Position numbers and translations under genes: made by a program. Of a DNA stretch of 34,487 nt, positions 1,491-21,910 are shown piece by piece. Origin of the DNA: an uncultured Oscillospiraceae bacterium (GTDB lineage Bacteria; Bacillota; Clostridia; Oscillospirales; Oscillospiraceae); NCBI GenBank assembly GCA_944385665.1, contig CALWYB010000025.1:1-34487 (forward strand), written 5' to 3'. The notes beneath the pieces were generated by a model. The model had not been told where the DNA came from. It saw nothing but the letters and a program-made list of their open reading frames with translations, and ran no database searches. Numbering within the stretch: position 1 is the first letter of the stretch; each line of letters begins with the position of its first letter.

Positions 1491-3195
1491 AGCTTCCCTC
1501 CTGAATCTTGGGCATACGGATCTCCACACAGGTGCCCACATCCAGCTCGCTGGTGATGTGCAGCCCGTACTGTTTGCCGAAGTAGATCTGAAGCCGGTCG
1601 TTCACATTTTTGATGCCGATGCCGGTGCGGTCCTTGGGGCCGTGCTGGAGGATGGAGGCCACCTGCTCCTCGCTCATGCCCACGCCGTTGTCCTGTACGG
1701 TAAAGACGATGTCCTCCCCGTCTGGATAGACCCGCACGGTGATGCGCCCCTCGTCCACCAACAGGTCCAAGCCGTGGTTGATAGCGTTTTCAATGATGGG
1801 CTGGAGGGTGATCTTGTTGCAGTAGTAGTCCAGACATGCCGGGTCGACCTCGAATTCATAGGTGAACTGATTTTTATAGCGGTACTTCTGGATCTGAAGA
1901 TAGCTCTCTGCGTGCTCGATCTCCTTGGCGATGGGGATGAGTTCGCTGCCCTTGCTGATGCTGATGCGGAACAGCCGGGCCAGGGCGTGGACCATCTTCA
2001 CCGCGTCGGTGTTGCGGCCCTGCTCGCACATCCAGGCGATGGAGTCCAGGGTGTTGTATAGGAAGTGGGGGTTAATCTGGGCCTGGAGGGCCTTCAACTC
2101 CGTTTTCCGCAGATTGACCTCCTCCTCCCGCACGGTAGACATCAGCTGCTGGATGCGCACCACCATGTGGCCGAAGGAGTCGGACAGCTCCCGTACCTCC
2201 CGGGTACCGCCCACAGGGCGGTAAGTGAAGTGGTCGGCGTCGGTCTCAAAGCTTTCCATGGCGGAGGCCAATCCCCGCAGGGGACGGCCCAGCAGCTGGG
2301 AGAGCAGGAAGCTGGTGAGCAGCGCGGCGGCCAGCACCACCACCGCCAGCAGACCGGACAGGCGGATCATGTCCTGTACATTCCGGTTGACCAGCTCGTC
2401 CACGTAGCTGACGCCGATGATTCGCCAGTCGCTGCCCTCCACACTGGTCAGGCAGTAGATGACCGTGTCATCCACGTAGGTGCCGTCGTCCAGAGCAGCC
2501 AGCGCATTGGTGTTTTCTGATTTCAGCCCTGCGTAGAGAAGCTGCTGCTGGGGGTGGTAGACGATATTTCCGTCCCGGTCCATCAGAAAGCAGTAGCCCC
2601 GCTGGCCGATACTCACATTATTGATGTAGTTGGAAATGCTGGAGAAGCTCAGGTCCAGGGAGACCCAAGCGGCCTCGCCGGGCTGGGAGAGGGGGGCGGT
2701 CATGGTGACCACCCAGGGGTAGTAGCTCTCAAACAGGGTCTCCACATGGGGGGCGGTCATGTACGGGGCCGAGGAGTGTAGTGCCTTCTCTAAGTTAAAG
2801 GAGAGATTTTGATAGATGTGTTCCTTGGGCTGACGCCCGGGAGACCAGCAGTCCAGCAGGGCCCCCTGGGCGGAGTAGCTGGTGACCGCTACCACATCGG
2901 GACGGAACTGAAGGAAGGCGGCGAGCAGTTCATCCCGGCTGCCCTCATTTTCCAGCATGGACTGCTCCACCAGAGCCATGGCCTGGTTCATGTCCGAGAG
3001 GTAATTGCCCACCGTATTGGACACCTGGGAGACCGCCTGGGCGCTGGTGGTGCGGGCGCTTTGTACCATGGCGCTGCGGTAGCGGTTCAGAAACAGAAGG
3101 ATGCAGCAGCACAAAATGATAGCCACCACACCCACCACCATGGCCACCAGAATGGTGGTGATCCGCACGCCGCTGCGGGAGACGCCGCGCTTCAA
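1477..3195 (-). CDS. YesM/LytS-type membrane sensor histidine kinase
   Basis: 572 residues. It probably starts at TTG (3195), which overlaps the yesN stop as TTGA, typical of translational coupling. Order: transmembrane helix about 12-36; extracytoplasmic Cache-like sensor about 40-275; second helix about 279-303; HAMP about 303-355; His_kinase domain with QAQINPHFLYNTLDSIAW, phospho-acceptor His377; HATPase with N box around Asn470 (QPIIENAINHG), DNGVGM (502-507) and GIGIKN (525-530). This is the architecture of YesM kinases, which phosphorylate an AraC-type YesN regulator. The next gene is a sugar-binding lipoprotein, likely its extracellular partner. All motifs appear intact. The stimulus is inferred to be a sugar. 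Confidence 0.9.
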   Translation of the reverse strand: MKRGVSRSGVRITTILVAMVVGVVAIILCCCILLFLNRYRSAMVQSARTTSAQAVSQVSNTVGNYLSDMNQAMALVEQSMLENEGSRDELLAAFLQFRPDVVAVTSYSAQGALLDCWSPGRQPKEHIYQNLSFNLEKALHSSAPYMTAPHVETLFESYYPWVVTMTAPLSQPGEAAWVSLDLSFSSISNYINNVSIGQRGYCFLMDRDGNIVYHPQQQLLYAGLKSENTNALAALDDGTYVDDTVIYCLTSVEGSDWRIIGVSYVDELVNRNVQDMIRLSGLLAVVVLAAALLTSFLLSQLLGRPLRGLASAMESFETDADHFTYRPVGGTREVRELSDSFGHMVVRIQQLMSTVREEEVNLRKTELKALQAQINPHFLYNTLDSIAWMCEQGRNTDAVKMVHALARLFRISISKGSELIPIAKEIEHAESYLQIQKYRYKNQFTYEFEVDPACLDYYCNKITLQPIIENAINHGLDLLVDEGRITVRVYPDGEDIVFTVQDNGVGMSEEQVASILQHGPKDRTGIGIKNVNDRLQIYFGKQYGLHITSELDVGTCVEIRMPKIQEGSYETK

Positions 3196-4469
3196 GCCCG
3201 CTCACCCGCCTTTTCCAGGTCCAGCCTGCGGCGCATGGCGTTGGGAGACTCGCCGCAGTATTTTTTAAAGCAATAGCTGAAGTAGTGCTGGTCGGTATAG
3301 CCGCACCGCTGGGCCACCTCCTGGATTTTCATGGGAGAGGAGGACAGCAGGTCCCGGGCGGCCTCCATGCGCTTGCGGATCAGGATGTTAATAAAGGTTT
3401 CTCCGGCATACTTTTTGATGCAGGCGCTGAGGTGGTTGGGGCTTACATCCAGCATGCCGCTCAGGGAGACCAGGGAGAGGTCGGCGTCCATATAGTGCTG
3501 ATCCAGAGTGTCCAGAGCCCGCTTGCACAGCAGATTGCCCCCTTTGACGGCGGGGGCCAGGTCGCGGATAAACTGGACGCCCCCCTCTGCGGGATCGCCC
3601 TGGCGCAGCGCCTCCATAGCCTGGCGGTATGCCTCATGGAGGGCGGTAAGGGTGTGTACCGCCCGGCTGACCCCGATACGGCAGCGCTTGTTCAGCACCC
3701 GGGAGGCCATCTGGGGGATCTCATCGGCCAGAATATGCAGATATTCCTCAAAGTCGGAGGGATTGCCCAGCAGCACCGAAATCACCTTGCCCGAGGCAAA
3801 AAAGCCCACCCCCCGGAGATACTTGGCGGCCAGGGTGTTCACCGACGCGGCAAAGGCGGAGTCGGTGCAGTTGGAGCCATCCTCGGCCAGGAGCGTGGAC
3901 ACCATCACCGTATAGTAGGGGTGGTCGTCCGGGTCCCGGAGCAAACCGCACTGCCGGGCAAACGCCTCCGCGTGGGCCTCACCGTCCGGGTCTGGGTAGT
4001 TATCCAGTACCAGGGGCATGAGCATAGTGGCGCGCAGGTCCTGTTCGTCCATCCGGGGGCTGGCCTGGCGAAACAGGGCGAACTGGGCGTCAATTTTTTG
4101 GCGGATGTTGCGCAGCTCAGCTCCCAGCCCCTCCAGAGTCAGAGGCTTGAGCATATAGCTGAGAATATTGTACTGGATGGCCTGCTTGGCATACTCAAAA
4201 TCATCGTAGCCGCTTAAAAAGGCGATGTTGGTGGCAGGGCGCACTTCGCGCACCTGACGGGCCAGCTCAATGCCGGAGATAAAGGGCATACGGATGTCGG
4301 TAAGCAGCAGATCGGGCTCCAGCTTCTCCACCAATTGGAGGGCGTCCAGACCGTTGCTGGCCTTTCCCACCAGACAAAAGCCATAGTCCTCCCAGGGAAT
4401 CATGGTACAGACAGCTTCCCGAAGTTCATCCTCGTCGTCGGCGACGATCACAGTGTACAGTGCGGCCAT
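3192..4469 (-). CDS. YesN-type response regulator (REC + AraC HTH)
   Basis: 425 residues. The start at 4469 is preceded by AAAGGA. An N-terminal receiver domain (residues 4-125) has the acidic pocket DDE (11-13), phospho-acceptor Asp58 in LLLTDIRMP and Lys108 in SYMLKP. A middle region of about 190 residues has no clear motif (YesN linker). The C-terminal AraC-type double HTH, about 325-420, includes LSLVSLSGMLDVSPNHLSA and IQEVAQRCGYTDQHYFSYCF. It should bind DNA when phosphorylated by the adjacent kinase and most likely activates sugar-uptake genes, mglB being the nearest candidate. First gene of the yesN-yesM-lipoprotein operon. A palindrome identical in plan to the LysR-linked site sits about 105 bases upstream. 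Confidence 0.9.
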   Translation of the reverse strand: MAALYTVIVADDEDELREAVCTMIPWEDYGFCLVGKASNGLDALQLVEKLEPDLLLTDIRMPFISGIELARQVREVRPATNIAFLSGYDDFEYAKQAIQYNILSYMLKPLTLEGLGAELRNIRQKIDAQFALFRQASPRMDEQDLRATMLMPLVLDNYPDPDGEAHAEAFARQCGLLRDPDDHPYYTVMVSTLLAEDGSNCTDSAFAASVNTLAAKYLRGVGFFASGKVISVLLGNPSDFEEYLHILADEIPQMASRVLNKRCRIGVSRAVHTLTALHEAYRQAMEALRQGDPAEGGVQFIRDLAPAVKGGNLLCKRALDTLDQHYMDADLSLVSLSGMLDVSPNHLSACIKKYAGETFINILIRKRMEAARDLLSSSPMKIQEVAQRCGYTDQHYFSYCFKKYCGESPNAMRRRLDLEKAGERA

Positions 4470-4621: not shown

Positions 4622-5503
4622 TTACAGACAGGTACCGTCCAGGATAAATTGACGAAACCGGCGCACGGCAGGAGCCTGGTAGGAGCGGTCATCACTGACC
4701 AGGTAAAAGTTTCGCTCCCACACAGGAAAACTGATTTGCAGGATCTTGACGTTCAGCCGTAATAAGAGCTCCATGTAGGGCACCACGGCGATGCCGAAGC
4801 CCTGGGCCACCAGACCGGCGATGACCTGATCCTCCTCCGTCTCATAGGCGATCTGAGGGGTGCCGTTGATCTGGGCAAACAGGCCGTCCACCACCCCCCG
4901 CAGGCCGGAGCCTTTGGCGAAGTATACCTGGGGGTAGGGGAGGGTCTGGGACAGGTCCACCGTGTGGAACTGGGCCAGAGGATGATTCCGTGGGACGATC
5001 AAAACCAGGTCCTGCCGGTCCACCGGAATGGAGGCAAAGCCAAATTCTGCCGGGGGACGGGAGCAAAACAGCAAATCAAACCGCTTTGCAGCCAATCCCT
5101 CCAGCAGATGCTGGGTGACGTCGGTGTGGAAGGTGAAGCGGATATCCTGGCCGGGGTGGGCGGCCAGAAAGCGGGAGGCCAGAGAAGGGACCAGCTCGAT
5201 GCCCAGAGTGCGCAGCAGCCCCAGGCGGATCAGCCCCTCGCCCCGGGCCACCCGCTGCAGAGACTCCACCCCCTGGTCCAGGGTGGACAGGGACTGCTCC
5301 ACACACTCCAGAAACTGCTCCCCAAAGCGGGTGAGAGCAGTGCTGCGTCCGTTCTTTTCAAACAGGGGCACCCCCAGCTCCGACTCCAGCTGCGTGATGG
5401 CATGACTCAAGCTGGGCTGGGTGATGCAAAGACGCTCGGCGGCCCGGGTGTAATGCAGGGTATGGGCCAGTTCGGCAAAATAACGAAGATGTAACAAGTT
5501 CAT
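4622..5503 (-). CDS. LysR-family transcriptional regulator of the adjacent shikimate/quinate operon
   Basis: 293 residues from the start at 5503. An upstream in-frame start at 5563 would add 20 residues and run through the operator, and LysR proteins normally begin a few residues before the HTH, so 5503 is preferred; its SD is a weak G-run. The winged HTH covers residues 1-60 (LRYFAELAHTLHYTRAAERL, ITQPSLSHAITQLE, PLFEKNGRSTALTRFG). The effector-binding domain, about 90-293, has the usual two-lobed pattern (IRLGLLRTLG, DLLFCSRPP, VAQGFGIAVVP). Divergent from aroE-like gene 1, with a T-N11-A box between them: the classical arrangement for a LysR activator of the divergent operon that also represses itself. 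Effector unknown; shikimate, quinate or a dehydro form is inferred. Confidence 0.9.
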   Translation of the reverse strand: MNLLHLRYFAELAHTLHYTRAAERLCITQPSLSHAITQLESELGVPLFEKNGRSTALTRFGEQFLECVEQSLSTLDQGVESLQRVARGEGLIRLGLLRTLGIELVPSLASRFLAAHPGQDIRFTFHTDVTQHLLEGLAAKRFDLLFCSRPPAEFGFASIPVDRQDLVLIVPRNHPLAQFHTVDLSQTLPYPQVYFAKGSGLRGVVDGLFAQINGTPQIAYETEEDQVIAGLVAQGFGIAVVPYMELLLRLNVKILQISFPVWERNFYLVSDDRSYQAPAVRRFRQFILDGTCL

Positions 5504-5545
5504 CGTAACGCCCCCCATCATCTTATGCAAAGCATAACACAAACC

Positions 5546-5560
5546 ATAGAAAAAATCTAT
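5546..5560. promoter_or_regulatory. LysR recognition site (T-N11-A palindrome) in the divergent promoter region
   Basis: ATAGA-AAAAA-TCTAT is a perfect inverted repeat with 5-bp arms and satisfies T-N11-A (T5547, A5559). Its centre lies about 65 bases before the start point predicted from the promoter at 5583-5611, the usual place of the primary LysR site. Confidence 0.7.
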
Positions 5561-5582
5561 CATTTCATACGAAAGAGTTCAT

Positions 5583-5611
5583 TTGTTAAATTTTTATCGA
5601 TGATGTAGAGT
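5583..5611 (+). promoter_or_regulatory. Probable promoter of the shikimate/quinate operon
   Basis: TTGTTA (5583-5588), 17-base spacer, TAGAGT (5606-5611). The weak -10 fits a promoter that needs an activator. The predicted start near 5618 rules out the ATG at 5612 as start codon of the first gene. Confidence 0.6.
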
Positions 5612-5624
5612 ATGGGACGAACAA

Positions 5625-5670
5625 AAGCTGCCCGGCCGGCAGAAGGAGCGCTCCCAAGCCGGGGCAGTTT
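5625..5670 (+). other. Leader hairpin touching the ribosome binding site of the first operon gene
   Basis: AAGCTGCCCGGC (5625-5636) can pair with GCCGGGGCAGTTT (5658-5670) with a single bulged G. The 3' arm ends one base before the SD AAAGGAGG (5671-5678). It could tune translation or mRNA stability. There is no T-run, so it is not a standard terminator. Confidence 0.5.
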
Positions 5671-5686
5671 AAAGGAGGAACTGAGC

Positions 5687-6550
5687 TTGCATATTTCAGG
5701 CACCACCACTCTGCTGGGGCTGATCGGCTCGCCGGTAGAGCATTCCAAATCTCCGGCCATGTACAACCACTGTTTTCAGACCTTCGGCCTGGATTGGGCC
5801 TACCTGGCCTTCAACATCCCCCTGGAAAAGACGGGGGAGGCAGTACAGGCCATCCGGACCCTTCATATGCGGGGGGCCAATGTGACCATGCCCTGCAAAA
5901 GCGCTGTCATTCCCTACCTGGACAAGCTGACCCCTGCGGCCCAGGCCATCCACGCCGTCAACACCATTGTCAATGAGGACGGCGTGCTGGTAGGCCACAA
6001 CACCGACGGATGCGGCTACACACAGAACCTGCGCCGCAATGGCGTGGAGGTCAAGGGCAAGAAGATTGTCCTGCTGGGCGGCGGCGGCGCGGCCTCGGCC
6101 ATCACGGTCCAGGCGGCCCTGGAGGGGGCGGCGGAGATCGCCGTCTTCAACCTGCGGGACAGCTTCTGGGCGCAGATCCAGCAGCGCATGGACACCATCG
6201 CCCACACCGCTCCGGACTGTAAGATTTCCCTGCAGGACCTCAACGACCGGGATGCCCTGAAAGACGCCATCGCCCGCTGCGACATACTCTCCAACGCCAC
6301 CCGGGTGGGGATGGCTCCCTATGAGGACCAGAGCAACATCACCGATCTGAGCTGGTACCGCCCTGACCTGGTGGTCACCGACGTGGTCTACGCGCCTCCC
6401 GCCACCAAGATGCTCCGGGAAGCTCAGGCCGCGGGCTGCAAGACCTGCGACGGCCTGGGCATGCTGCTGTGCCAGGGGGCGGAGGCCTTCCGGCTGTACA
6501 GCGGCCTGGAGATGCCGGTGGAGGAGATCCGGACCCTGCTTTACTCCTAA
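5687..6550 (+). CDS. YdiB-like quinate/shikimate dehydrogenase, copy 1
   Basis: 287 residues. Start is TTG at 5687, eight bases after AAAGGAGG; this also aligns its N-terminus with that of copy 2. The AroE fold is complete: GSPVEHSKSP with substrate serines Ser20 and Ser22, catalytic Lys71 (NVTMPCK), Asn92, Asp107 (HNTDG), dinucleotide loop GGGGAASA (131-138) and Gln263 (GMLLCQGAEAF). The cofactor loop reads FNLRDSF (154-160): Asp158 after Arg resembles YdiB (NRRDEF), which uses NAD as well as NADP, rather than biosynthetic AroE (NRT). Known reaction: reversible oxidation of shikimate or quinate to the 3-dehydro acid. First gene of a seven-gene operon with a transporter, shikimate kinase and a second copy, so a catabolic or salvage role is more likely than the basic aromatic pathway. 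Confidence 0.85.
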   Translation: MHISGTTTLLGLIGSPVEHSKSPAMYNHCFQTFGLDWAYLAFNIPLEKTGEAVQAIRTLHMRGANVTMPCKSAVIPYLDKLTPAAQAIHAVNTIVNEDGVLVGHNTDGCGYTQNLRRNGVEVKGKKIVLLGGGGAASAITVQAALEGAAEIAVFNLRDSFWAQIQQRMDTIAHTAPDCKISLQDLNDRDALKDAIARCDILSNATRVGMAPYEDQSNITDLSWYRPDLVVTDVVYAPPATKMLREAQAAGCKTCDGLGMLLCQGAEAFRLYSGLEMPVEEIRTLLYS

Positions 6551-6574
6551 AATAACAACGAAAGGATTTTGGAA

Positions 6575-7798
6575 ATGAACCAGACTGTGGACTCCAGAAA
6601 GTACTACCCCACGGCCCTGGCCCTGTACATCACCTACTTTGTCCTGGGCATTGCGGCCTCCATTATGGGGCAGTACAAGCAGAACTTCGCCGCCATGTGG
6701 GGCGCCGCTACCCTGGCCGACGGAAGCTACGACGTCTCCGGCGTGGTGGCGGTGATCGCCGCCATCGGACTGGGCCGCCTCATCGCCTTCCCGGTGGCAG
6801 GTCCTCTCAGCGACCGGCTGGGCCGCCGCCTCTCCGCGCTCATCGGCTGTGCCCTGTATGCCATCTTCCTGCTGGCGGTGACCTTTTCCACCAACATCTA
6901 CTTAGGCTATGTGCTGGCGGTGATCAGCGGTATGGCCAACTCCTTCCTGGATACCAGCATCACCCCCTCCTGCATGGAGATTTTTAAGGAGAAGGGCACC
7001 ATCGCCAACATCTTCACCAAGCTGTCCATCTCCATCGCTCAGTTCCTGCTGCCCTTTGCCATCAGCTTTGTGGCCGTGGAGAACCTGCCCTTCAATACCA
7101 TCTTCCTGGCTACCGCGGTTATCATCGTGGTGGACGGCATTTTCCTGGCCTTCCTGCCCTTCCCGCCCTTTGAGCGTGCCGTGAAGGGGGACAAGAAGAA
7201 GGAGAAGATGCAGTTTACTCCCGCCGCCATCGTGCTGGTGTGCCTGGGCTTCACCACCTCCACCACCTTCATGCTGTGGATGAACTGCAACCAGGAGCTG
7301 GGTACTCTGTACGGCCTGGCCGACCCCAGCAAGATCCAGTCCTTCTACTCCGTGGGTATTGTGCTGGCCCTCTTTGTCAGCGCCGCCCTCCTGAAGCGGA
7401 ACGTGGAGCCTGCCAAGATCCTGGTGACCTACCCCTGCGTGGCTCTGGTGACCCTGGCGGCGGTCTATGTGGTACAGCAGCCGGTGATGTGTCTGGCCGG
7501 CGGCTTCCTGCTGGGCTTCTTCGCCGCCGGCGGCGTGCTTCAGCTGGTCACCGCGGTGGCCAATGAGATGTTCCCTAAAAATCGCGGCGTCATCACCTCC
7601 ATTGTGATGATCGCCTCCAGCGTGGCCAACTACCTCACCGTCAGCGCGGCGGGCGTGCTCACCCGCATGGGCGGCACCAATGGCCCCCGGCTGGTGCTGC
7701 TGTTCAACATGGCCATCACCCTCATCGGCATTCTGCTGGCCCTGTACCTCAATGTGTGCCTGAAGCGGGAGCGCTCTGCCGCCAAGCAGGAGGGCTGA
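6575..7798 (+). CDS. MFS transporter, probably for quinate/shikimate-type acids
   Basis: 407 residues with about 12 hydrophobic segments. AAAGGA at 6561-6566 supports the ATG at 6575 over the TTG at 6569. The MFS signature between helices 2 and 3 is clear (AGPLSDRLGRRLSALIG). The middle loop is short and charged (KGDKKKEKM). It starts 24 bases after copy 1 of the dehydrogenase and ends three bases before the shikimate kinase. Family knowledge: secondary transporters, many for sugars or organic acids. Import of a hydroaromatic acid is inferred from context only; residues do not reveal substrate. Confidence 0.85.
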   Translation: MNQTVDSRKYYPTALALYITYFVLGIAASIMGQYKQNFAAMWGAATLADGSYDVSGVVAVIAAIGLGRLIAFPVAGPLSDRLGRRLSALIGCALYAIFLLAVTFSTNIYLGYVLAVISGMANSFLDTSITPSCMEIFKEKGTIANIFTKLSISIAQFLLPFAISFVAVENLPFNTIFLATAVIIVVDGIFLAFLPFPPFERAVKGDKKKEKMQFTPAAIVLVCLGFTTSTTFMLWMNCNQELGTLYGLADPSKIQSFYSVGIVLALFVSAALLKRNVEPAKILVTYPCVALVTLAAVYVVQQPVMCLAGGFLLGFFAAGGVLQLVTAVANEMFPKNRGVITSIVMIASSVANYLTVSAAGVLTRMGGTNGPRLVLLFNMAITLIGILLALYLNVCLKRERSAAKQEG

Positions 7799-7801
7799 GG
7801 C

Positions 7802-8308
7802 ATGAAGCATCTGTTTCTCATCGGATTTATGGGCGCGGGCAAGACCTCCGTCTCCCAGGCCCTGGGCAAGGCCCTGGGTTGGAAGGTGGTAGAGATGGAT
7901 CAGCACATCTCCGCCCAGGAGGGGATGTCGGTCTCCGACATCTTCGCCCAAAAAGGAGAGCCCTACTTCCGCGCCTGCGAGACCGCTCTGCTGGAGAGCT
8001 TTGCCCAGAGCGAGCCCTGCGTGGTCTCCTGCGGAGGCGGCGTGCCCATGCGGGAGGAGAACGTGGCTGCCATGAAGCGCAGCGGCACCGTCGTGCTGCT
8101 CACCGCCCGCCCGGAGGTCATTCTGGAGCGAGTGAAGGACGACCACAGCCGCCCCCTTCTGGAGGGGCACAAGGACATCCCATACATCACCTCGCTCATG
8201 GAGCAGCGCCGTCCCAAGTATGAGGCCGCGGCGGACCTGGTCGTGGACACCTCGGACATCAGCGTGGAAGAAGTCTGCCAGGAGATCCTCCGGCAGACCC
8301 AAGAATAA
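7802..8308 (+). CDS. aroK: Shikimate kinase
   Basis: 168 residues, usual length. Phosphorylates shikimate to shikimate-3-phosphate with ATP in the cytoplasm. Walker A is GFMGAGKT (8-15). Shikimate-contacting residues are in place: Asp33 (EMDQH), Arg57 (YFRACE) and the Gly78-Gly80 run (CGGGVP). The lid motif RPLL begins at Arg117. SD GGAGGG lies just before the ATG, inside the end of the transporter gene. In this operon it could commit imported or regenerated shikimate to chorismate synthesis. The enzymes of the full pathway (aroA, aroB, aroC, aroD) are absent from the window, so this is not a standard aro operon. Whether it is the only shikimate kinase of the genome cannot be told. Confidence 0.9.
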   Translation: MKHLFLIGFMGAGKTSVSQALGKALGWKVVEMDQHISAQEGMSVSDIFAQKGEPYFRACETALLESFAQSEPCVVSCGGGVPMREENVAAMKRSGTVVLLTARPEVILERVKDDHSRPLLEGHKDIPYITSLMEQRRPKYEAAADLVVDTSDISVEEVCQEILRQTQE

Positions 8309-8340
8309 ACGAAACAAAACTCAGCAAGGAGGAGTTTATC

Positions 8341-9186
8341 ATGTCTAAGAAAGCACCCCTTACCATCAGTTCCTGGACCCTGGGCGACCAGTGCACCTTT
8401 GAGGAGCGGGTGGCCGCTGCCAAGGCCGCCGGCTTCGAGGGCATCGGCCTGCGGGCGGAGACCTACGTGGACGCCCTGAACGAGGGCCTCTTCGACGCCG
8501 ACATCCTGGCCATCCTGAAGAAGTACGACATGAAGGTCACCGAGGTGGAGTACATCGTGCAGTGGTGTGAGGAGCACCGCTCCTACGAGCAGAAGTACAA
8601 GGAGCAGATGTGCTTCCATATGTGCGAGCTGTTCGGTGTCAACCACATCAACTGCGGCCTCATGGAGGACTACTCCGTGGAGTACACCGCCCAGAAGCTG
8701 CGGGAGCTGTGCCATCGGGCCGGCAAGTACACCATCGGCGTGGAGCCCATGCCTTACAGCGGCCTGCCCGATGTGAAGAAAGCCTGGGCGGTGGTGAAGG
8801 CCTCCGGCTGTGACAATGCCAAGCTGATTTTGGACTTCTGGCACTACATCCGGGCCAATCAGCCCTACGACCTCTCCATTCTGGAAGGCATCCCTGCCGA
8901 GAAGATCGTCTCCATCCAGATCAACGACGTCCAGGCCCACCCCTACGCCAAGAGCATCCTGCGGGATGAGTCCATGCACGACCGTATGCTCCCCGGCACC
9001 GGCAGCGGCGACACCGCTGGCTTTGTCAAGCTCATCCGGGACAAGGGTGTGCAGCCCGCCGTCATCGGTGTGGAGGTCATCAGCGATGAGATCCTCAGCC
9101 ACGGCGTGGCGCAGGCTGCCAAAGAAAACTACGAGGCCACCAAGGCCGTTCTGGACCAGGCCTGGCCCGAAGCGCTGGAAGCGTAA
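8341..9186 (+). CDS. Sugar-phosphate isomerase/epimerase-like TIM barrel, candidate 3-dehydroshikimate dehydratase
   Basis: 281 residues, xylose-isomerase-like TIM barrel (AP_endonuc_2 fold). SD AAGGAGG-like (AGGAGG) precedes the ATG. Probable metal ligands in order: Glu135 (GVEPMPY), Asp165 (LILDFWH), Gln193 (IQINDV) and Glu245 (GVEVIS); His168 and Arg171 form D-x-x-H-x-x-R. The Glu/Asp/Gln/Glu set at this spacing resembles QuiC/AsbF 3-dehydroshikimate dehydratases (3-dehydroshikimate to protocatechuate), but also other members such as inosose dehydratase and sugar epimerases. Its place between shikimate kinase and the second dehydrogenase favours a hydroaromatic substrate. Fold is sure; the dehydratase assignment is inference. 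Confidence 0.75.
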   Translation: MSKKAPLTISSWTLGDQCTFEERVAAAKAAGFEGIGLRAETYVDALNEGLFDADILAILKKYDMKVTEVEYIVQWCEEHRSYEQKYKEQMCFHMCELFGVNHINCGLMEDYSVEYTAQKLRELCHRAGKYTIGVEPMPYSGLPDVKKAWAVVKASGCDNAKLILDFWHYIRANQPYDLSILEGIPAEKIVSIQINDVQAHPYAKSILRDESMHDRMLPGTGSGDTAGFVKLIRDKGVQPAVIGVEVISDEILSHGVAQAAKENYEATKAVLDQAWPEALEA

Positions 9187-9209
9187 TTTCATCATCGGAG
9201 GAATTGATT

Positions 9210-10082
9210 ATGGAAAGCAGAATTTCTGGTCACACCAAGCTCTTTTGCCTCATTGGCTCCCCCGTGGGCCACTCCGGCTCTCCCGCTATGTACAATTACA
9301 GCTTCGCCCGCACTGGCGTGGACGCGGCTTACCTGGCCTTTGATATTCCCCTGGAGCAGACCCAGGCGGCGGTGGACGCCCTGAAGCTGCTGAATGTGGG
9401 CGGCTTCAACGTCACTATGCCCGACAAGACCGCCGTGGCCGGCATCGTGGACGAGCTGTCCCCCGCTGCCCGTCTCATCGGCGCCAGCAACACCGTCACC
9501 GTGGGGGAGGACGGCAAGCTCACCGGTCACAACACCGACGGCATCGGCTTTGTCCGCAACCTCCAGGAGCACGGTGTGGAGGTCAAGGGCAAGAAGCTGG
9601 TGGTCCTGGGCGCCGGCGGCGCCGCCACCGCCATCTGCGTCCAGGCGGCTCTGGACGGTGCGGAGTCCATCGCCATCTTCAACCGCAAGGACGAGTTCTA
9701 CGCCAACGGCGAGCACACCGTGGAGAAACTGGCCCAGGCGGTCCCCGCCTGCAAGGTCTCCATCTCTCCCCTGGAGGACAGCGCCGCTCTGGCTGCTGCG
9801 GTGCAGGGCTGTGACATCCTGGTCAACGCCACCAAGGTGGGCATGAAGCCCCTGGACGAGGAGAGCCTCATCGATCCCTCCCTGTTCCGCGCCGACCTGG
9901 TGGTGGCCGACACCGTGTACAATCCCCGTGAGACCAAGATGATCCAGCAGGCTCAGGCCGCCGGCTGCAAGGCCGCCGTGGGCGGCATCGGCATGCTGCT
10001 GTGGCAGGGTGTGGCCGCTTATAAGCTGTTCACCGGCAAGGACATGCCCGCCCAGGAGGTCCTGGAGAAGTTCTTCTCCTAA
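9210..10082 (+). CDS. YdiB-like quinate/shikimate dehydrogenase, copy 2
   Basis: 290 residues from ATG 9210 (SD GGAGGAA; a TTG at 9204 is too close to the SD). Motifs: GSPVGHSGSP with Ser22 and Ser24, catalytic Lys73 (NVTMPDK), Asn94, Asp110 (HNTDG), GAGGAATA (134-141), and cofactor loop FNRKDEF (157-163), nearly the YdiB loop, with Asp161. GMLLWQGVAAYK closes the active site. Clearly homologous to copy 1 along its whole length but divergent, so an old duplication with probable division of labour (for example quinate versus shikimate, or oxidation versus reduction). Followed after 30 bases by the ABM gene. Confidence 0.86.
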   Translation: MESRISGHTKLFCLIGSPVGHSGSPAMYNYSFARTGVDAAYLAFDIPLEQTQAAVDALKLLNVGGFNVTMPDKTAVAGIVDELSPAARLIGASNTVTVGEDGKLTGHNTDGIGFVRNLQEHGVEVKGKKLVVLGAGGAATAICVQAALDGAESIAIFNRKDEFYANGEHTVEKLAQAVPACKVSISPLEDSAALAAAVQGCDILVNATKVGMKPLDEESLIDPSLFRADLVVADTVYNPRETKMIQQAQAAGCKAAVGGIGMLLWQGVAAYKLFTGKDMPAQEVLEKFFS

Positions 10083-10112
10083 AAGGGCCCATGTGAGAAG
10101 GAAGGAATTTTT

Positions 10113-10421
10113 ATGAACCCCTTGCTGCTGCTTGTGACCTATACGGCGAAACCTGGGATGCGGGAGCATTTTCTCCATGACATCCAGGAAAGCGCAATAT
10201 TAGATACCATCCGTGGGGAAGACGGCTGCCTGACCTATGACTACTTCCTGGCAGCAGAGGACGCAGACCGTCTTCTGCTGGTGGAGAAGTGGGCCAGTCC
10301 CGAGCAGCAGCAGACCCACATGGACCAGCCCCACATGAAGGCACTGGGAGAGATCAAAGAGCGGTGGATCGCCCAGACCCATGTAGAGCGCATTGATTTT
10401 AAAGAAGGAGATCAAAAATGA
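10113..10421 (+). CDS. ABM-fold (YgiN-like) small protein
   Basis: 102 residues, antibiotic-biosynthesis-monooxygenase fold: starts LLLLVTYTAKPGM, then GCLTYDYFLAAEDADRLLLVEKWAS and the His-rich MDQPHM, all typical. SD AAGGAAGGA. Family members are dimeric ferredoxin-like proteins: cofactor-free oxygenases, isomerases, quinol-binding or haem-degrading proteins. Its stop overlaps the start of the Fe-S flavoenzyme by ATGA, so the two are probably made together. In an anaerobe a true oxygenase role is unlikely; tautomerase, ligand-binding or protective roles are possible. Function not known. Confidence 0.8.
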   Translation: MNPLLLLVTYTAKPGMREHFLHDIQESAILDTIRGEDGCLTYDYFLAAEDADRLLLVEKWASPEQQQTHMDQPHMKALGEIKERWIAQTHVERIDFKEGDQK

Positions 10422-12346
10422 AGTTTCCGGCTATGTTTTCTCCGGTGAAGATCGGCACCGTCACGGTGCCCAACCGGTTTGTCATGCCCCCCATGGGCAA
10501 CAACCTGGCCAATACCGACGGTACCCTGAGCGACCGTTCGGTGGCCTACTATGAGGCCCGTGCCAAGGGCGGCTTCGGCCTCATCACCATCGAGTCCACC
10601 GTAGTCTATCAGGAGGCCAAGGGCGGCCCCCGCAAGCCCTGCCTGTTCTCCGACGACACCGTGGACAGCTTCCGCCGGGCGGCGGACGCCTGCCACGCCT
10701 ATGGTGCCAAGGTGTCCATCCAGCTCCAGCACGCCGGCCCCGAGGGCAACTCCGCCCTCACCGGCTACCCCCTGAAGGCGGCCAGCGCCATGCCCGCCGC
10801 CAACGGCCGGGAGATCCCCGAGGCAGTGTCCAATGAGGAGATCTACCGCATCATCGAGTGCTACGGCGACGCGGCCCGCCGGGCTCAGCAGGCCGGCATC
10901 GACATGGTGGAGGTCCACTGTGCCCACGGCTACCTGGTGAGCACCTTTATCTCCCAGCGCACCAACCACCGTACCGATGAGTTCGGCGGCTGCTTTGAAA
11001 ACCGGATGCGTCTGCCTCGGCTGATCATCGAGAACATCCGCCGCAAGACCGGCGGCAACCTGCCCATCCTGTGCCGCATCAACGCCTGCGACGAGGTGGA
11101 GGGCGGCCAGAGCGTCCAGGACGCGGCGGCTGTGGCGGCCTACCTGGAGCAGGAGTGCGGCGTGGACGCCCTGCACGTGACCCGTGCCGTCCACCTCCAC
11201 GATGAGTTCATGTGGGCTCCCGGCATCACCCACGGCGGCTTCAATGCCGACCTGGTCACCGAGATTAAGCGAGCCGTGTCCGTGCCCGTCATCGCGGTGG
11301 GCCGCTTCACCGAGCCCCAGTACGCCGAGCTGCTGGTGAAGCAGGGCCGCGCCGACCTGATCGCCTTTGGCCGTCAGAGCATCGCTGACCCCGAGCTGCC
11401 CAACAAGGCTCGCACCGGCCGCCTGGAGGAGCTGTCTCCCTGCATCGGCTGCCTGCTGGGCTGTGTGCCCAATATGTTTGCCGGCCATCCCATCACCTGC
11501 GCCGTGAACCCCTGTGTGAGCCGGGAGCTGGAGCTGGTGCCCGCTGCCGTCTCCAAGAAGGTGGTCGTGGTGGGCGGCGGCCCCGGCGGCCTGTATGCGG
11601 CCTGGGCCTGCGCGGTGCGGGGCCACAAGGTGACCCTGCTGGAGAAGGAGAGCGAACTGGGCGGCAACTTCCGCGTGGCCTCCTATCCCACCGGCAAGGG
11701 CCAGCTGTCTGAGCCCATCCGTGCCTTCATCGTTAAGTGCCAGAAGGCGGGCGTGGACCTGCGCTGCGGTGTGGAGGCCAACGAAGAGATCCTGAAGGAG
11801 CTCCAGCCCGACGCCATCATCCTGGCCACTGGCTCCAACCCTCTGGTCCTGCCCATCCCCGGCCTGGATACCTGCGGCTATATCACGGCCCAGGATATGC
11901 TGCTGGGCAAAGCCAACGTGGGCACCAAGGTGCTGGTCGTGGGCGGCGGCATGGTCGGCTGCGAGGCCGCCGAGTACCTGGCCGAGCGGGAGCATGAGGT
12001 GGGCATCATCGAGATGAAGGATGTCATTGCCGCCGACGTGACCCCCGAGAGCCGCCGGTACATGTTCGAGAACTTTGAGGAGCACCACACGGTTCTCCAG
12101 CCCGGCGCCAAGGTTTGTAAGTTCTACCCCGACGGCGTGGACTACACCCTGGCCGACGGCACTGCCGGCTCCATGCGCGGCTACGACAACGTGGTTCTGG
12201 CCATGGGTTCCCGCAGCAATGCGGTCCTGAAGGAGGCCGCGGAGCGGGTGGCCGGACAGGTCATCGTTATCGGCGAGGCCTTCAAGGCCCCCGGCAATGC
12301 GGTGACTGCCACCGGCGACGCCCTGAATGCGGCCCTGCAAATTTAA
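10418..12346 (+). CDS. Old-yellow-enzyme/2,4-dienoyl-CoA-reductase-like Fe-S flavoenzyme (FMN, 4Fe-4S, FAD), probable enoate or enone reductase
   Basis: 642 residues, the usual length. Residues 1-340: FMN TIM barrel (PNRFVMPPMGNN; HCAHGYLVSTF with probable proton donor Tyr172; RTDEFGG; His259/His261 in the substrate loop). Cysteines 342, 345, 349 and 361 have the C-x2-C-x3-C-x11-C spacing of the 4Fe-4S site in this family. Then an FAD-type Rossmann motif GGGPGGLYAAWA (386-397) and an NAD(P)H motif VVGGGMVGCEAAEYLA (507-522). Relatives include 2,4-dienoyl-CoA reductase, clostridial enoate reductase, flavone reductase and BaiCD. They reduce C=C bonds conjugated to a carbonyl group, which 3-dehydroshikimate and shikimate possess. 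Last gene of the operon, coupled to the ABM gene, ending before a strong terminator. Substrate is inferred. Confidence 0.88.
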   Translation: MKFPAMFSPVKIGTVTVPNRFVMPPMGNNLANTDGTLSDRSVAYYEARAKGGFGLITIESTVVYQEAKGGPRKPCLFSDDTVDSFRRAADACHAYGAKVSIQLQHAGPEGNSALTGYPLKAASAMPAANGREIPEAVSNEEIYRIIECYGDAARRAQQAGIDMVEVHCAHGYLVSTFISQRTNHRTDEFGGCFENRMRLPRLIIENIRRKTGGNLPILCRINACDEVEGGQSVQDAAAVAAYLEQECGVDALHVTRAVHLHDEFMWAPGITHGGFNADLVTEIKRAVSVPVIAVGRFTEPQYAELLVKQGRADLIAFGRQSIADPELPNKARTGRLEELSPCIGCLLGCVPNMFAGHPITCAVNPCVSRELELVPAAVSKKVVVVGGGPGGLYAAWACAVRGHKVTLLEKESELGGNFRVASYPTGKGQLSEPIRAFIVKCQKAGVDLRCGVEANEEILKELQPDAIILATGSNPLVLPIPGLDTCGYITAQDMLLGKANVGTKVLVVGGGMVGCEAAEYLAEREHEVGIIEMKDVIAADVTPESRRYMFENFEEHHTVLQPGAKVCKFYPDGVDYTLADGTAGSMRGYDNVVLAMGSRSNAVLKEAAERVAGQVIVIGEAFKAPGNAVTATGDALNAALQI

Positions 12347-12364
12347 GTTTCTTCCCATTCAATG

Positions 12365-12409
12365 CCAGAGGACCCCGGGACAGGCTTGGCCTGTCCCGGG
12401 GTCCTCTGG
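12365..12409. terminator. Strong hairpin terminator between convergent genes
   Basis: Arms 12365-12385 and 12389-12409 pair perfectly over 21 bp around a TTG loop. The stem is followed by TTATAT rather than a long T-run. It closes the shikimate/quinate operon and may also serve the acetyltransferase gene on the other strand, which ends at 12425. Confidence 0.85.
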
Positions 12410-14425: not shown

Positions 14426-14711
14426 TGAGCCCCTCAAAAAACAAGTGGAAACCTCGAAACAGATCCTCGGTCAGGCGGTCAAAGCTGGGACCGGGGATTT
14501 TTTTGCCCGAAAAGGGGAAAAGAAAAACGGGGATGGGGCGTGGAAAAGTCCGGAGTGGGCATAAAGGATAAGGACAGCCGTTTTTTACAAACAATTTTTG
14601 TCGCTTTCTTTTCGTACGAAAAGGAGGAGCCGGTGGCAGAAACATGAAAATTGTGATATAGTAGGAAACCGTTGTAAAGACTGAAAATAGAAACAGAGGG
14701 TGATAGAAGTT
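14426..14711 (+). other. Intergenic region upstream of codB
   Basis: 286 bases with no convincing gene. It contains the 16-bp palindrome (14608-14623) and a possible -10 (TATAGT, 14657-14662) with no clear -35, as expected for a regulated promoter. I see no riboswitch consensus that I recognise. Confidence 0.5.
14608..14623. promoter_or_regulatory. 16-bp perfect palindrome, candidate operator of the cytosine genes
   Basis: CTTTTCGTACGAAAAG is fully self-complementary and lies about 90-100 bases before codB, just upstream of the likely promoter. Probably the binding site of a dimeric regulator encoded elsewhere. Confidence 0.6.
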
Positions 14712-15956
14712 ATGAGTCAGGAAAAAAAGAAAACAGACAAAGACGTCCAGGTGGACGCCGACTACTCCCTGGAGGCGGTACCGGAATCGGCCCGCAAGGG
14801 ATTTTGGAACATGTTTTTTGTCATGCTGGGCTTTACCTTTTTCTCTGCCAGCATGAGCGTGGGCGCCAAGCTGGGCAATGGCCTGGACCTGTCCGGGTTC
14901 TTCTGGGCTTGCCTCATCGGCGGCGTGATCCTGTCCGCCTACTGCGGTATTTTGGCCTATATCGGATCCGAGACCGGCATGACCATGGACCTGCTGTGCC
15001 GCCGCACCTTTGGCGAAAAGGGTTCCTACCTGTCCTCCGCCATTCTGGGCTTTACCCAGATCGGCTGGTTTGGTGTGGGCGTGGCTATGTTCTCCATCCC
15101 TGCCGCCCAGCTCATGGGAGTCAATGAGTGGGTCCTCACCATCATCGCCGGCCTGCTGATGACCGCCACCGCCGCCACCGGAATGAAGGCGTTGGAGATC
15201 GTCAGCTATATCTCCGTGCCCCTCATTGTCATTCTGGGTATGTACTCCATGATCACCGCTACCAGCGACGGCGGCGGACTCGCAGCCATCTTTGCCCAGT
15301 CTGCCGGCGGCATCACCCTGATAACCGGCATTGGCTATGTCATCGGCTCCTTCATCTCCGGCGGTACCGCCACTCCCAACTTTATCCGCTTTGCCAAAAA
15401 CAGCAAGATCGCCGTGTGGACCACCGTCATCGCCTTTTTCCTGGGCAATACCCTGATGTTCTGCTTCGGCGCGGTGGGCGGCGCTTTCACCGGGAAGGAC
15501 GATATTTTCTACGTCATGATCGCCCAGGGCCTGGCCATCCCCGCTCTTATTGTGCTGGGTGCCAACATCTGGACCACCAACAACAACGCCCTGTACACCG
15601 GCGGCCTGGCCATCTCCAACGTCTCCGGGGTGCGGATGAAGTTTACCACCTGGATCGCCGGTATCGTGGGCACCGCTCTGGCCATCTGGCTCTACTGGAA
15701 CTTTGTGGGCTGGCTCAATATCCTCAACTGTGCCCTGCCCCCCATCGGCGTTCTTGTGATCCTGGACTTCTTCAAAAACCGCAAAAAATTTGCTGCCGGT
15801 GGTGAGACCTCCGTGGTCAACTGGTTCAACATCGCCGGCATCGTACTGGGCGCGGCGGTGGCCAACACCCTGCACTGGGGCATCGCTGCCCTGAACGCCA
15901 TGATCGTGGCGGCCATTTGCTTCTTTGTGGGTGAACTGCTCCGGAAAGACCGGTAA
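14712..15956 (+). CDS. codB: Cytosine permease (NCS1 family)
   Basis: 414 residues. ATG at 14712 follows GAGGGTG; the GTG at 14700 lies inside that SD. About 12 hydrophobic helices, with NCS1/CodB motifs: SMSVGAKLGNGLDLSGFFWA near the first helix, TQIGWFGVGVAMF, and GGTATPNFIRFAKNSKIAV. Imports cytosine (or a close base analogue) by cation symport. It lies 29 bases upstream of cytosine deaminase, giving the classical codBA order. The hydrophilic N-terminal tail (MSQEKKKTDKDVQ) is normal for the family. Confidence 0.92.
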   Translation: MSQEKKKTDKDVQVDADYSLEAVPESARKGFWNMFFVMLGFTFFSASMSVGAKLGNGLDLSGFFWACLIGGVILSAYCGILAYIGSETGMTMDLLCRRTFGEKGSYLSSAILGFTQIGWFGVGVAMFSIPAAQLMGVNEWVLTIIAGLLMTATAATGMKALEIVSYISVPLIVILGMYSMITATSDGGGLAAIFAQSAGGITLITGIGYVIGSFISGGTATPNFIRFAKNSKIAVWTTVIAFFLGNTLMFCFGAVGGAFTGKDDIFYVMIAQGLAIPALIVLGANIWTTNNNALYTGGLAISNVSGVRMKFTTWIAGIVGTALAIWLYWNFVGWLNILNCALPPIGVLVILDFFKNRKKFAAGGETSVVNWFNIAGIVLGAAVANTLHWGIAALNAMIVAAICFFVGELLRKDR

Positions 15957-15985
15957 TATATATTTTTAGAGAGGAAGGTACGGTT

Positions 15986-17224
15986 ATGCTGCTGAAAGAT
16001 CTGCACCTGGGCAACACCCAGGAGACGGTGGACATTCGGGTCACCGACGGGAAGTTTGCACAGATCGCTCCCAACCTGGAGCCCATCCCCGGGGAGGAGA
16101 CGGTTACGGACTGCGCGGGCAAGATGGTGCTGCCCCCCTTTGTGGAGTCTCACGTACACCTGGATACCTGCCTGACGGCGGGCCGCCCCCGCTGGAACCT
16201 CACCGGAACCCTGTTTGAGGGTATCCAGTGCTGGGAGGAGTACAAGCCTTTCCTCACCAAGCAGGAGGTCAAGGAGCGGGTGAACAAGGCCATCCGCATG
16301 CAGGCCGCCAACGGCATCCAGTATGTGCGCACCCATGTGGACATCAACGACCCCAAGCTCACCGCTCTGGAGGCCATCCTGGAGCTGCGGGAGGAGGTCC
16401 GGGACTACATGGACATCCAGATCGTAGCCTTTCCCCAGTATGGCATCCTGAGCTACCCCAAGGGGGCGGAGCTGCTGGAGCAGGCCCTGAAGATGGGAGC
16501 CGACGCCGCGGGCGCCATTCCTCACTTTGAGTTTACCCGGGAGTACTCCGTGGAGTCCCTGAACATCTGCTTCGACCTGGCGCAGAAGTACAATAAGCTC
16601 ATTGACGTCCACTGCGACGAGATCGACGATGAGGCCTCCCGGGGCCTGGAGACCCTGGCCACCCGGGCCTATGAGACCGGGATGAAGGACATGGTCACCG
16701 CCTCTCACACCACTGCCATGCACAGCTACAACAACGCCTACGTCATCCGCCTCATGCGCATCCTCAAACTTTCCGGCATCAACTTTGTGGCCAACCCCTG
16801 CGTCAATGTCCACTTGGGCGGTCGGGCCGACACCTATCCCAAGCGCCGCAGCATGACCCGGGTGAAGGAGCTCACCGACGAGGGCATCAACGTCTCTTTC
16901 GGCTCCGACGATATCTTCGATCCCTGGAACCCTCTGGGCAACGCCAAGATGCGGGATCAGGTGTTTATGGGCCTGTATACCGGCCATATGCTGGGCTATG
17001 ATGAGATCGTCAACTCCTACCGCTTCGTCACCACCAATGCCGCCCGCACCCTCCACTTGGGAGATGACTACGGCATCGCAGAGGGGAAGGACGCCAACTT
17101 TGTCATCCTGGACGCAAAGGACTGGTACGACGCATTGAACTACGATGCGCCCATCTTGCGCAGTTACCGGAAAGGAAAACTCCTTGCCAGCACTGTCCCG
17201 GTGGAGACACAGGTATTCTTCTGA
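15986..17224 (+). CDS. codA: Cytosine deaminase
   Basis: 412 residues, amidohydrolase family. Converts cytosine to uracil and ammonia in the cytoplasm. Metal and catalytic residues: His56 and His58 (ESHVHLD), His209 and Glu212 (DVHCDEIDD), His241 (ASHTTAMHSY), Asp308 (GSDDIFDPW). The HCDEIDDE and FVANPCVNVHLGGRADTYPKRR blocks closely follow E. coli CodA. The loop has Ser where E. coli has His (GSDD versus GHDD), a modest change near the metal Asp. SD GAGAGGAAGG. Forms an operon with the permease for use of cytosine as nitrogen and pyrimidine source. Confidence 0.94.
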   Translation: MLLKDLHLGNTQETVDIRVTDGKFAQIAPNLEPIPGEETVTDCAGKMVLPPFVESHVHLDTCLTAGRPRWNLTGTLFEGIQCWEEYKPFLTKQEVKERVNKAIRMQAANGIQYVRTHVDINDPKLTALEAILELREEVRDYMDIQIVAFPQYGILSYPKGAELLEQALKMGADAAGAIPHFEFTREYSVESLNICFDLAQKYNKLIDVHCDEIDDEASRGLETLATRAYETGMKDMVTASHTTAMHSYNNAYVIRLMRILKLSGINFVANPCVNVHLGGRADTYPKRRSMTRVKELTDEGINVSFGSDDIFDPWNPLGNAKMRDQVFMGLYTGHMLGYDEIVNSYRFVTTNAARTLHLGDDYGIAEGKDANFVILDAKDWYDALNYDAPILRSYRKGKLLASTVPVETQVFF

Positions 17225-21758: not shown

Positions 21759-21910
21759 AATCCAGATTTTACTTTTTGCGCGTCTGCATGTACTTTGCCG
21801 CGCGGGTTTTCCGGTTGTGTGCGGCCGGAGGACCCGCCGTTTTTTCGGGAGGACGGGCCGAAGGGGCCGGACATGCGGACCCAGTTCCATGGAGGGAAGA
21901 AGGAGGCACC

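What the first reader, a model, noticed from the sequence alone, without database searches (positions are those of the whole stretch)
5583..12409. Candidate anaerobic, possibly reductive, quinate/shikimate system
One LysR-linked operon holds two YdiB-like dehydrogenases, a transporter, shikimate kinase, a QuiC/AsbF-like TIM barrel, an ABM-fold protein and an Fe-S enoate-reductase-type flavoenzyme. Known aerobic quinate pathways end in protocatechuate and ring-cleaving oxygenases; none is here. A C=C reductase next to shikimate dehydrogenases suggests instead that the enone/enoate bond of 3-dehydroshikimate or shikimate is reduced, giving dihydroshikimate-like products and using hydroaromatic acids as electron sink. 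Such reduction has been described biochemically in lactobacilli, and gut flora are known to turn quinate/shikimate into cyclohexanecarboxylate; I know of no operon of this make-up assigned to it. The TIM barrel and aroK would provide side exits to protocatechuate or chorismate.
Basis: partly seen in the sequence, partly recalled or inferred. Interest (0 to 1): 0.9.

Follow-up and report, generated by a model that had tools for sequence, protein, structure and literature searches.

The report
Shikimate operon with unexplained reductase
A bacterium, probably from the gut, carries a gene cluster related to one already described in Listeria that probably imports the plant acid shikimate and processes it without oxygen, and its conserved but unexplained reductase makes an old question about bacterial ring reduction testable gene by gene.

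Summary
The operon is real: a divergent LysR gene, then seven co-directional genes (AroE, MFS, AroK, TIM barrel, AroE, ABM, Fe-S flavoenzyme) with gaps of at most 32 nt. Its make-up is not unknown. A genome whose TIM protein equals Lmo2234 over 284 residues reads LysR-TIM-OYE-AroE-MFS-MFS. The window's TIM is 55% identical to it, and the LysR's closest solved relative is the shikimate-bound regulator QuiR. Printed titles (papers not seen) say these Listeria genes make protocatechuate. So "no known operon" fails, but the reductive idea gains some support. The flavoenzyme belongs to its own clade (OYE-B). Of 55 distinct TIM genes, 23 have OYE-B within 7.5 kb, 24 an SDR, 0 both and 8 neither, and the TIM tree needs several switches. 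Of 26 TIM-module genomes checked, 24 hold a candidate ene-reductase; TIM-less controls were not run. I propose that shikimate becomes dehydroshikimate, with ring reduction, dehydration and ketone reduction making it an electron sink. Against this: two genus-mates keep LysR and OYE-B without TIM, and no substrate was tested. Verdict: a new variant of a known kind.

The parts
4622..5563 (-). LysR-type regulator, QuiR-like; family models begin at residue 21
   Evidence: Pfam HTH_1 + LysR_substrate; closest solved chain 5TED, Lmo0488 protein, 9.8e-41, named as L. monocytogenes QuiR bound with shikimate in PMC11602165 (passage)
5687..6550 (+). AroE1, YdiB-like shikimate/quinate dehydrogenase (ORF opens at 5612; likely start TTG 5687 behind AAAGGAGG)
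   Evidence: NCBIfam NF009200 1.4e-128 (428.3 bits, cut-off 432); aroE TIGR00507 212.1 over 200.2; start region read; Lys and Asp contexts NVTMPCK and NTDG in the translation, their catalytic role recalled
6569..7798 (+). MFS transporter, probable shikimate importer (inference)
   Evidence: Pfam MFS_1 5.4e-30; relatives of at least 40% identity in many TIM clusters
7802..8308 (+). AroK, shikimate kinase, extra copy
   Evidence: Pfam SKI 7.9e-47; another SKI match on the AroE-AroK ORF of contig C5
8341..9186 (+). TIM barrel of the Lmo2234 group (QuiC2 by inference); probable metal-dependent dehydratase
   Evidence: phmmer 3e-92 to 2g0w Lmo2234; AlphaFold model pLDDT 94, Foldseek best 2g0w TM 0.95, then 5hmq QuiC and 1i60 IolI; E135, D165, H168, Q193, R215, E245 invariant in 30 of 30
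9204..10082 (+). AroE2, YdiB-like dehydrogenase, core partner of the TIM gene
   Evidence: NCBIfam NF009200 449.4 bits over cut-off 432; 3tnl and YdiB-type chains closest among solved ones
10113..10421 (+). ABM-fold small protein, overlaps the next gene by 4 nt
   Evidence: Pfam ABM 3.7e-13; model pLDDT 92, Foldseek best PA3566, LsrG at rank 14
10418..12346 (+). Fe-S old-yellow-enzyme-type ene-reductase, OYE-B clade
   Evidence: Oxidored_FMN 7.8e-75 + Pyr_redox_2; Y172 aligns with residue 166 (Tyr) of 1ps9 dienoyl-CoA reductase and C342/345/349/361 with its CIGC...C...C cysteines (catalytic role recalled); own clade 100/100

Best explanation
This is a shikimate-responsive hydroaromatic operon whose core genes (LysR, TIM, AroE, OYE, MFS) are orthologous to an operon of Listeria. 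Steps as inferred: the MFS protein imports shikimate. AroE oxidises it to 3-dehydroshikimate (making NAD(P)H). The Fe-S flavoenzyme OYE-B reduces an activated ring C=C. The TIM barrel removes water beta to the ring ketone. AroE2 reduces the remaining ketone. The acid therefore serves as an electron sink: 2[H] if the product is dihydroshikimate, 4[H] if it is 3,4-dihydroxycyclohexanecarboxylate. AroK diverts part of the shikimate to chorismate. Shown here: the genes, their order, their orthology, and the conserved TIM/AroE/(OYE-B or SDR) core. Inferred: substrates, direction and order of steps.
For: The LysR is nearest to shikimate-bound QuiR. The TIM barrel belongs to the Lmo2234 group. OYE-B is one clade of 21 rows (100/100), each with a TIM gene or a QuiR-like LysR near it (L083's TIM). 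Of 56 TIM genes (55 after removing a duplicate record), 23 have OYE-B, 25 (24) an SDR, 0 both and 8 neither. On a 48-row TIM tree the SDR label needs 4 changes, at least 3 forced by well-supported branches. Of 15 SDR-type genomes 13 carry OYE-A or FrdL, in 10 of the 13 within 16 kb of TIM by coordinates; of 11 OYE-B-type genomes 7 carry OYE-A. Thus 24 of 26 TIM-module genomes hold at least one candidate ene-reductase. In L170 AroD, AroE, FrdL, SDR and TIM form one run. No UbiD and no type I dehydroquinase match in the own genome.
Against: G016 (99% complete) and G022 (65%) carry LysR+OYE-B but no TIM match, so OYE-B need not follow TIM. Listeria's genes are titled in print as protocatechuate biosynthesis with a dehydroshikimate dehydratase, which needs no reductase. 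G000 itself, G456, G459 and G436 have no OYE-A or FrdL, so a two-reductase scheme would be incomplete there. How often OYE-A and FrdL occur in TIM-less genomes was not measured. Seven of the 13 SDR-type ene-reductase calls rest on FrdL relatives of 31-36% identity, and G660's copy is in two pieces and may be broken. The Listeria/Enterococcus-like join on the TIM tree comes with a long-branch warning. AroE2-like genes stand without TIM in 45 of 80 loci, so AroE2 alone is no marker. No biochemistry was available.
Confidence: 0.5

Rival explanations
1. The operon is chiefly an oxidative exit to protocatechuate, as described for Listeria: shikimate to 3-dehydroshikimate by AroE, then QuiC2-type dehydration to protocatechuate, which is excreted. 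OYE-B merely rebalances NADH by reducing part of the 3-dehydroshikimate, or does something unrelated.
For: The TIM barrel belongs to the Lmo2234 group. Titles of Prezioso 2018 and Xue 2020 (reference lists). Foldseek places the QuiC dehydratase next after Lmo2234. No UbiD match in the genome, fitting excretion. OYE-B without TIM in two genus-mates fits an OYE-B that acts on 3-dehydroshikimate itself.
Against: It does not explain why TIM is accompanied by OYE-B or an SDR but never both, nor why 24 of 26 TIM-module genomes hold a candidate ene-reductase (no TIM-less control).
Confidence: 0.27
2. The operon mainly salvages environmental shikimate for aromatic amino acids: import, AroE interconversion and AroK phosphorylation, with TIM and OYE clearing side products.
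For: AroK (at least 40% identical) lies in 10 of 35 TIM loci of the genome contigs set. A chorismate mutase-AroK fusion lies in the Anaerotignum-type cluster L036.
Against: The other 25 of those 35 loci, the lactobacillus- and Clostridium-type ones among them, have none, nor do the Listeria-type clusters L158 and L159. The genome has its own AroE-AroK ORF. Salvage needs neither TIM nor OYE.
Confidence: 0.1
3. The cluster acts on an unrelated cyclitol or on a ring compound that only resembles shikimate.
For: IolI and IolE are structural relatives of the TIM barrel. TIM paralogues (52-54% identical) sit in other contexts in L168, L172 and L173.
Against: YdiB-like AroE, shikimate kinase and a QuiR-like regulator together point to shikimate-type acids.
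Confidence: 0.08

Closest known systems
Listeria monocytogenes qui genes (QuiR, QuiC2; protocatechuate biosynthesis)
   Same: L158, whose TIM equals Lmo2234 over 284 residues, reads LysR-TIM-OYE-AroE-MFS-MFS with OYE 58%, AroE 55% and first MFS 54% identical to the window's; LysR similar to QuiR.
   Different: The window adds a second AroE, AroK and an ABM protein in another inner order. Its genome has no match for the other Listeria module's OYE-A (best own hits 39% and 36%) or type I dehydroquinase; that module is LysR-OYE-A-AroE-AroD in L210.
Lactobacillus hydroaromatic reduction (quinate/shikimate to dihydroshikimate and 3,4-dihydroxycyclohexanecarboxylate; recalled, Whiting and Coggins)
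   Same: Lactiplantibacillus loci carry a TIM orthologue (62-65% identical) with AroE and MFS genes; L088 and L101 also carry AroD, ApbE and a fumarate-reductase-like flavoprotein.
   Different: An SDR stands where the window has OYE-B. The link between these genes and the recalled chemistry is my inference.
Fe-S old yellow enzymes: 2,4-dienoyl-CoA reductase (1ps9), BaiCD, BilR
   Same: Domain layout, aligned Tyr, four cysteines.
   Different: 488.3 bits against cut-off 825 for BaiCD and 462.3 against 750 for BilR; separate OYE-B clade.
QuiC / AsbF dehydroshikimate dehydratases
   Same: TIM fold; E135, D165 and E245 fall where AsbF has metal-binding Glu142, Asp172 and Glu253 (residues from PMC9324987, passage; mapping mine).
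   Different: About 20% and 15% identity. AsbF active-centre His144 and Lys200 would be Met137 and Asn195 by spacing, my mapping; QuiC has Leu and Ala at those places in the alignment.

Membership tests
Listeria-type qui operon (QuiR/QuiC2) | Core gene set side by side: divergent LysR, TIM, OYE, AroE, MFS | tested here: met
   All five present; inner order differs (AroE1-MFS-AroK before TIM, AroE2 and ABM between TIM and OYE)
Listeria-type qui operon (QuiR/QuiC2) | Shikimate-induced transcription through the LysR | not testable with these tools
   Only similarity to shikimate-bound 5TED (9.8e-41)
QuiC2-type dehydroshikimate dehydratase | Sequence group of Lmo2234 | tested here: met
   55% identity, E 3e-92, TM 0.95; that QuiC2 is Lmo2234 is inferred, not read
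QuiC2-type dehydroshikimate dehydratase | Converts 3-dehydroshikimate to protocatechuate | not testable with these tools
   Presumed metal ligands invariant in 30 of 30, necessary but not sufficient
Fe-S OYE ene-reductase (dienoyl-CoA reductase type) | FMN barrel + NAD(P)/FAD domain, active-site Tyr, four Fe-S cysteines | tested here: met
   (roles of the residues recalled)
BaiCD bile-acid or BilR bilirubin reductase | NCBIfam curated cut-off | tested here: not met
   488.3 of 825 bits; 462.3 of 750 bits
YdiB quinate/shikimate dehydrogenase | NCBIfam equivalog NF009390 cut-off 349 | tested here: not met
   286.0 and 269.9 bits; AroE2 meets the broader NF009200 (449.4 of 432), AroE1 just misses it (428.3); both meet aroE TIGR00507 (212.1 and 202.1 of 200.2)
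Aerobic quinate pathway with ring cleavage | Protocatechuate dioxygenase or other ring-cleaving oxygenase in the cluster | tested here: not met
   None among the ten proteins scanned; the rest of the genome was not searched for them

The most novel reading that the evidence does not exclude
The operon encodes most of a reductive hydroaromatic pathway for which I know no genes. The TIM barrel does not chiefly aromatise 3-dehydroshikimate but dehydrates its ring-reduced form to an enolone (a vicinal dione tautomer), as IolE does with inosose. OYE-B in clostridia and Listeria, or the SDR in lactobacilli and enterococci, reduces that product, the ABM protein may speed its tautomerisation, and AroE2 finishes 3,4-dihydroxycyclohexanecarboxylate. 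Protocatechuate in Listeria would then be a side reaction on the unreduced substrate. OYE-A, FrdL or OYE-B itself makes the first ring reduction.
Probability: 0.25. Interest if true: 0.75.

Novelty: new variant of a known kind. Interest (0 to 1): 0.5.

Why it matters
Quinate and shikimate reach the gut in plant food, and bacterial reduction of their ring has, to my knowledge (recalled), no assigned genes. The mutually exclusive OYE-B/SDR partners of one TIM-barrel enzyme give a short list of genes to assay, would question whether protocatechuate is the main product of such clusters under anoxia, and would link plant acids to electron disposal in anaerobic Clostridia and food lactobacilli.

Tried and rejected
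Quinate as the main substrate of the window's operon: weakened, since no type I dehydroquinase was found in the genome (25 of 30 genomes in that call had one); type II was not searched. Protocatechuate decarboxylation to catechol: no UbiD match in the own genome (2 of 10 genomes had one). The own genome's other full-length OYE proteins (L110, L111) as first ring reductase: both fall outside the OYE-A and OYE-B clades. ABM as a dione isomerase: the L036 relative hits LsrG in NCBIfam at 45.6 of 135 bits; for the L041 copy LsrG chains rank sixth and seventh of 11 solved hits (1.6e-8, 2.5e-7). The window ABM hits no NCBIfam model and shares only 22-25% identity with those copies, so this is a hint only. 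TIM paralogues in L168/L172/L173: neighbours scanned in L173 (permease, aldo/keto reductase, hemerythrin/PAS protein, zinc ABC transport) were uninformative. Foldseek on TIM and ABM did not separate dehydratase from isomerase.

Literature: ten searches; only listings were seen, and no title or abstract start shown names an operon or OYE for shikimate reduction. Passages only were seen of PMC11602165, PMC9324987, PMC13412374 and PMC12238238; the last, on gut OYE steroid reductases, does not hold the words shikimate or quinate. Prezioso 2018 is not held; Xue 2020 was seen as a reference only. Whiting and Coggins, lmo tags other than Lmo0488 and Lmo2234, and the IolE and dienoyl-CoA-reductase chemistry are recalled.

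Rows and choices: the 80 genome-contig loci are the best 80 of 258 relatives; 35 hold TIM. One search used 34 of these 35, the window and 20 stretches from 19 genomes; 17 of these are among the 38 TIM genomes (18 stretches) and two come. L083 was lost in that script's ORF choice and would add one OYE-B; L037 (no TIM called) and L106 (contig begins inside OYE) gave no row. L171 is the same contig as L084 (length 182331) and counts once in the 55; L085 and L086 are near copies from two species and L177 holds two TIM genes, all counted. L160 and L162 count as neither although an SDR lies just beyond 7.5 kb; the tree labels them SDR. AroK of L029, L030 and L058 is missed but seen. The OYE tree used 50 of 54 sequences over 560 aa, four identical ones dropped, shorter pieces left out. 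G763 and G846, with only the TIM paralogue, were left out of the 26 (FrdL 66% and none), as were TIM-less G016 and G022.


Full report
OBSERVATION. The window is G000:C25 of a 2.63 Mb draft genome in 132 contigs, 95.48% complete. It contains a divergent LysR gene and seven co-directional genes from about 5687 to 12346. Gaps between the seven genes are at most 32 nt, and ABM and OYE overlap by 4 nt. Another ORF of the genome (C5, 411 aa) matches both AroE and AroK families, so the operon's AroE1, AroE2 and AroK are additional copies. A gut origin is likely from the named relatives (chicken and goat gut records) but was not tested.

WHAT THE PARTS ARE. The LysR is closest among solved chains to 5TED, the Lmo0488 protein; PMC11602165 (passages) names 5TED as QuiR of Listeria monocytogenes bound with shikimate. 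The TIM barrel is closest to 2g0w, Lmo2234. A confident model (pLDDT 94) superposes on 2g0w at TM 0.95, followed by QuiC chains and IolI, with IolE and AsbF lower. E135, D165, H168, Q193, R215 and E245 are invariant in 30 of 30 aligned relatives; three of them fall where AsbF binds metal (passage, my mapping). The flavoenzyme has the dienoyl-CoA reductase layout, a Tyr aligned with residue 166 of 1ps9 and the four cysteines, but lies far below the curated cut-offs for BaiCD and BilR.

A KNOWN RELATIVE. In genome G560 the TIM protein equals Lmo2234 over 284 residues, and its neighbourhood reads LysR, TIM, OYE (58%), AroE (55%), MFS (54%), MFS (L158). A second locus there, L210, reads LysR, OYE-A, AroE, AroD, LysR. 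The titles of Prezioso et al. [quoted passage not shown] That QuiC2 is Lmo2234 is my inference. The window's operon is thus an enlarged relative of a described system, and the statement that no such operon is assigned does not hold.

COMPARATIVE GENOMICS. One genome-contig scan with AroE2 kept the best 80 of 258 relatives; 35 of the 80 loci hold TIM and 45 do not. In the order of L. plantarum 38 of 395 genomes had the TIM protein. In a phylum sample it is rare: 3 of 398, own included. In the window's genus OYE-B occurs in 3 of 64 genomes, own included, and TIM in 1 of 12 tested, the own one. Among 56 TIM genes examined (55 after removing a duplicate record) 23 have OYE-B within 7.5 kb, 25 (24) an SDR, 0 both and 8 neither. 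Of the 8, two have an SDR just beyond the limit, three are paralogues in other contexts and three are Anaerotignum-type. On a 48-row TIM tree the SDR label needs 4 changes, at least 3 forced by well-supported branches; Listeria-type (OYE-B) and Enterococcus-like (SDR) rows share a 100/99 clade, with a warning that long branches meet there. The exchange suggests that the two proteins do equivalent work.

TWO OYE CLADES. In a tree of 50 flavoenzymes OYE-B (21 rows, 100/100) holds the window protein; 18 rows have TIM among the called neighbours, L083's TIM is seen, and the two genus-mates L108 and L109 have only the LysR. OYE-A (10 rows, 100/100) holds copies beside quinate/shikimate genes. I then took 26 genomes with a TIM module: 15 SDR-type and 11 OYE-B-type. 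OYE-A (at least 50% identity) or a fumarate-reductase-like flavoprotein FrdL (E at most 1e-60) is in 13 of 15 and 7 of 11. So 24 of 26 hold at least one candidate ene-reductase. In 10 of the 13 SDR-type cases it lies within 16 kb of TIM (coordinates); it does not in G850, G819 and G660, and G660's copy is in two pieces. Seven of the FrdL calls are relatives of only 31-36% identity.

MECHANISM. Best reading: shikimate is imported and oxidised to 3-dehydroshikimate; ring C=C reduction by OYE-B, beta-dehydration by the TIM barrel and ketone reduction by AroE2 turn it into a reduced hydroaromatic acid, consuming 2[H] net to dihydroshikimate or 4[H] to 3,4-dihydroxycyclohexanecarboxylate (formula balance, mine). 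AroK takes a share to chorismate; a chorismate mutase-AroK fusion in L036 fits that branch. The order of steps is not fixed by the data. The exchange of OYE-B and SDR next to TIM would make most sense if both reduce the TIM product, which protocatechuate could not be. The strongest point against this is that G016 and G022 keep LysR and OYE-B without TIM, as expected if OYE-B acts on 3-dehydroshikimate itself.

WHAT IS UNCERTAIN. No substrate was tested. The published role in Listeria is protocatechuate formation, and the same enzyme may do both. In the window an ABM protein lies between AroE2 and OYE; a different ABM follows TIM in L035, L036, L040, L041 and L042, and no ABM-like match was found in the other TIM loci of the 80 except L104, where it lies apart. 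Two separate recruitments hint at a real role, possibly isomerisation, because relatives of the second kind resemble LsrG among other ABM proteins.

VERDICT. Observation confirmed; interpretation partly supported; a new variant of a known kind. Interest 0.5: the system is not new, but the unexplained reductase and its SDR substitute make an old pathway question testable.

Noticed in passing
window 21776-24840 (+): Two adjacent genes: a 2-hydroxyglutaryl-CoA dehydratase D-type protein and an HGD-D/BcrAD-BadFG ATPase fusion (acyl-CoA dehydratase activase model over its cut-off), 9.4 kb past the operon.
   Followed up: no
window 14700-17224 (+): Cytosine permease followed by cytosine deaminase (both over NCBIfam cut-offs).
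   Followed up: no
window 510-4469 (-): Periplasmic-binding-protein domain, dCache sensor kinase and AraC-type response regulator in a row, next to the LysR gene.
   Followed up: no
L160 12677-14797 and L162 1609-3729: In Enterococcus-like TIM clusters a 706-aa protein (hydantoinase/oxoprolinase family in L160, same length and place in L162) lies between MFS and SDR with two more proteins; those of L160 match no Pfam family.
   Followed up: partly
L041 2945-4381, L089 3946-5292, L163 8366-9703: A family of 445-478-aa proteins, 55-66% identical to each other, beside or near quinate/shikimate genes; the L041 and L163 copies match no Pfam or NCBIfam model; possibly a transporter.
   Followed up: partly
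L036 4181-5011: Chorismate mutase fused to shikimate kinase in an Anaerotignum-type cluster.
   Followed up: no
L168, L172, L173: TIM paralogues (52-54% identical to the window) outside any aro cluster; in L173 beside an amino-acid permease and near an aldo/keto reductase.
   Followed up: partly
L177 7727-12116: Two very similar TIM genes in one cluster of G602 (tree end branches 0.029 and 0).
   Followed up: no
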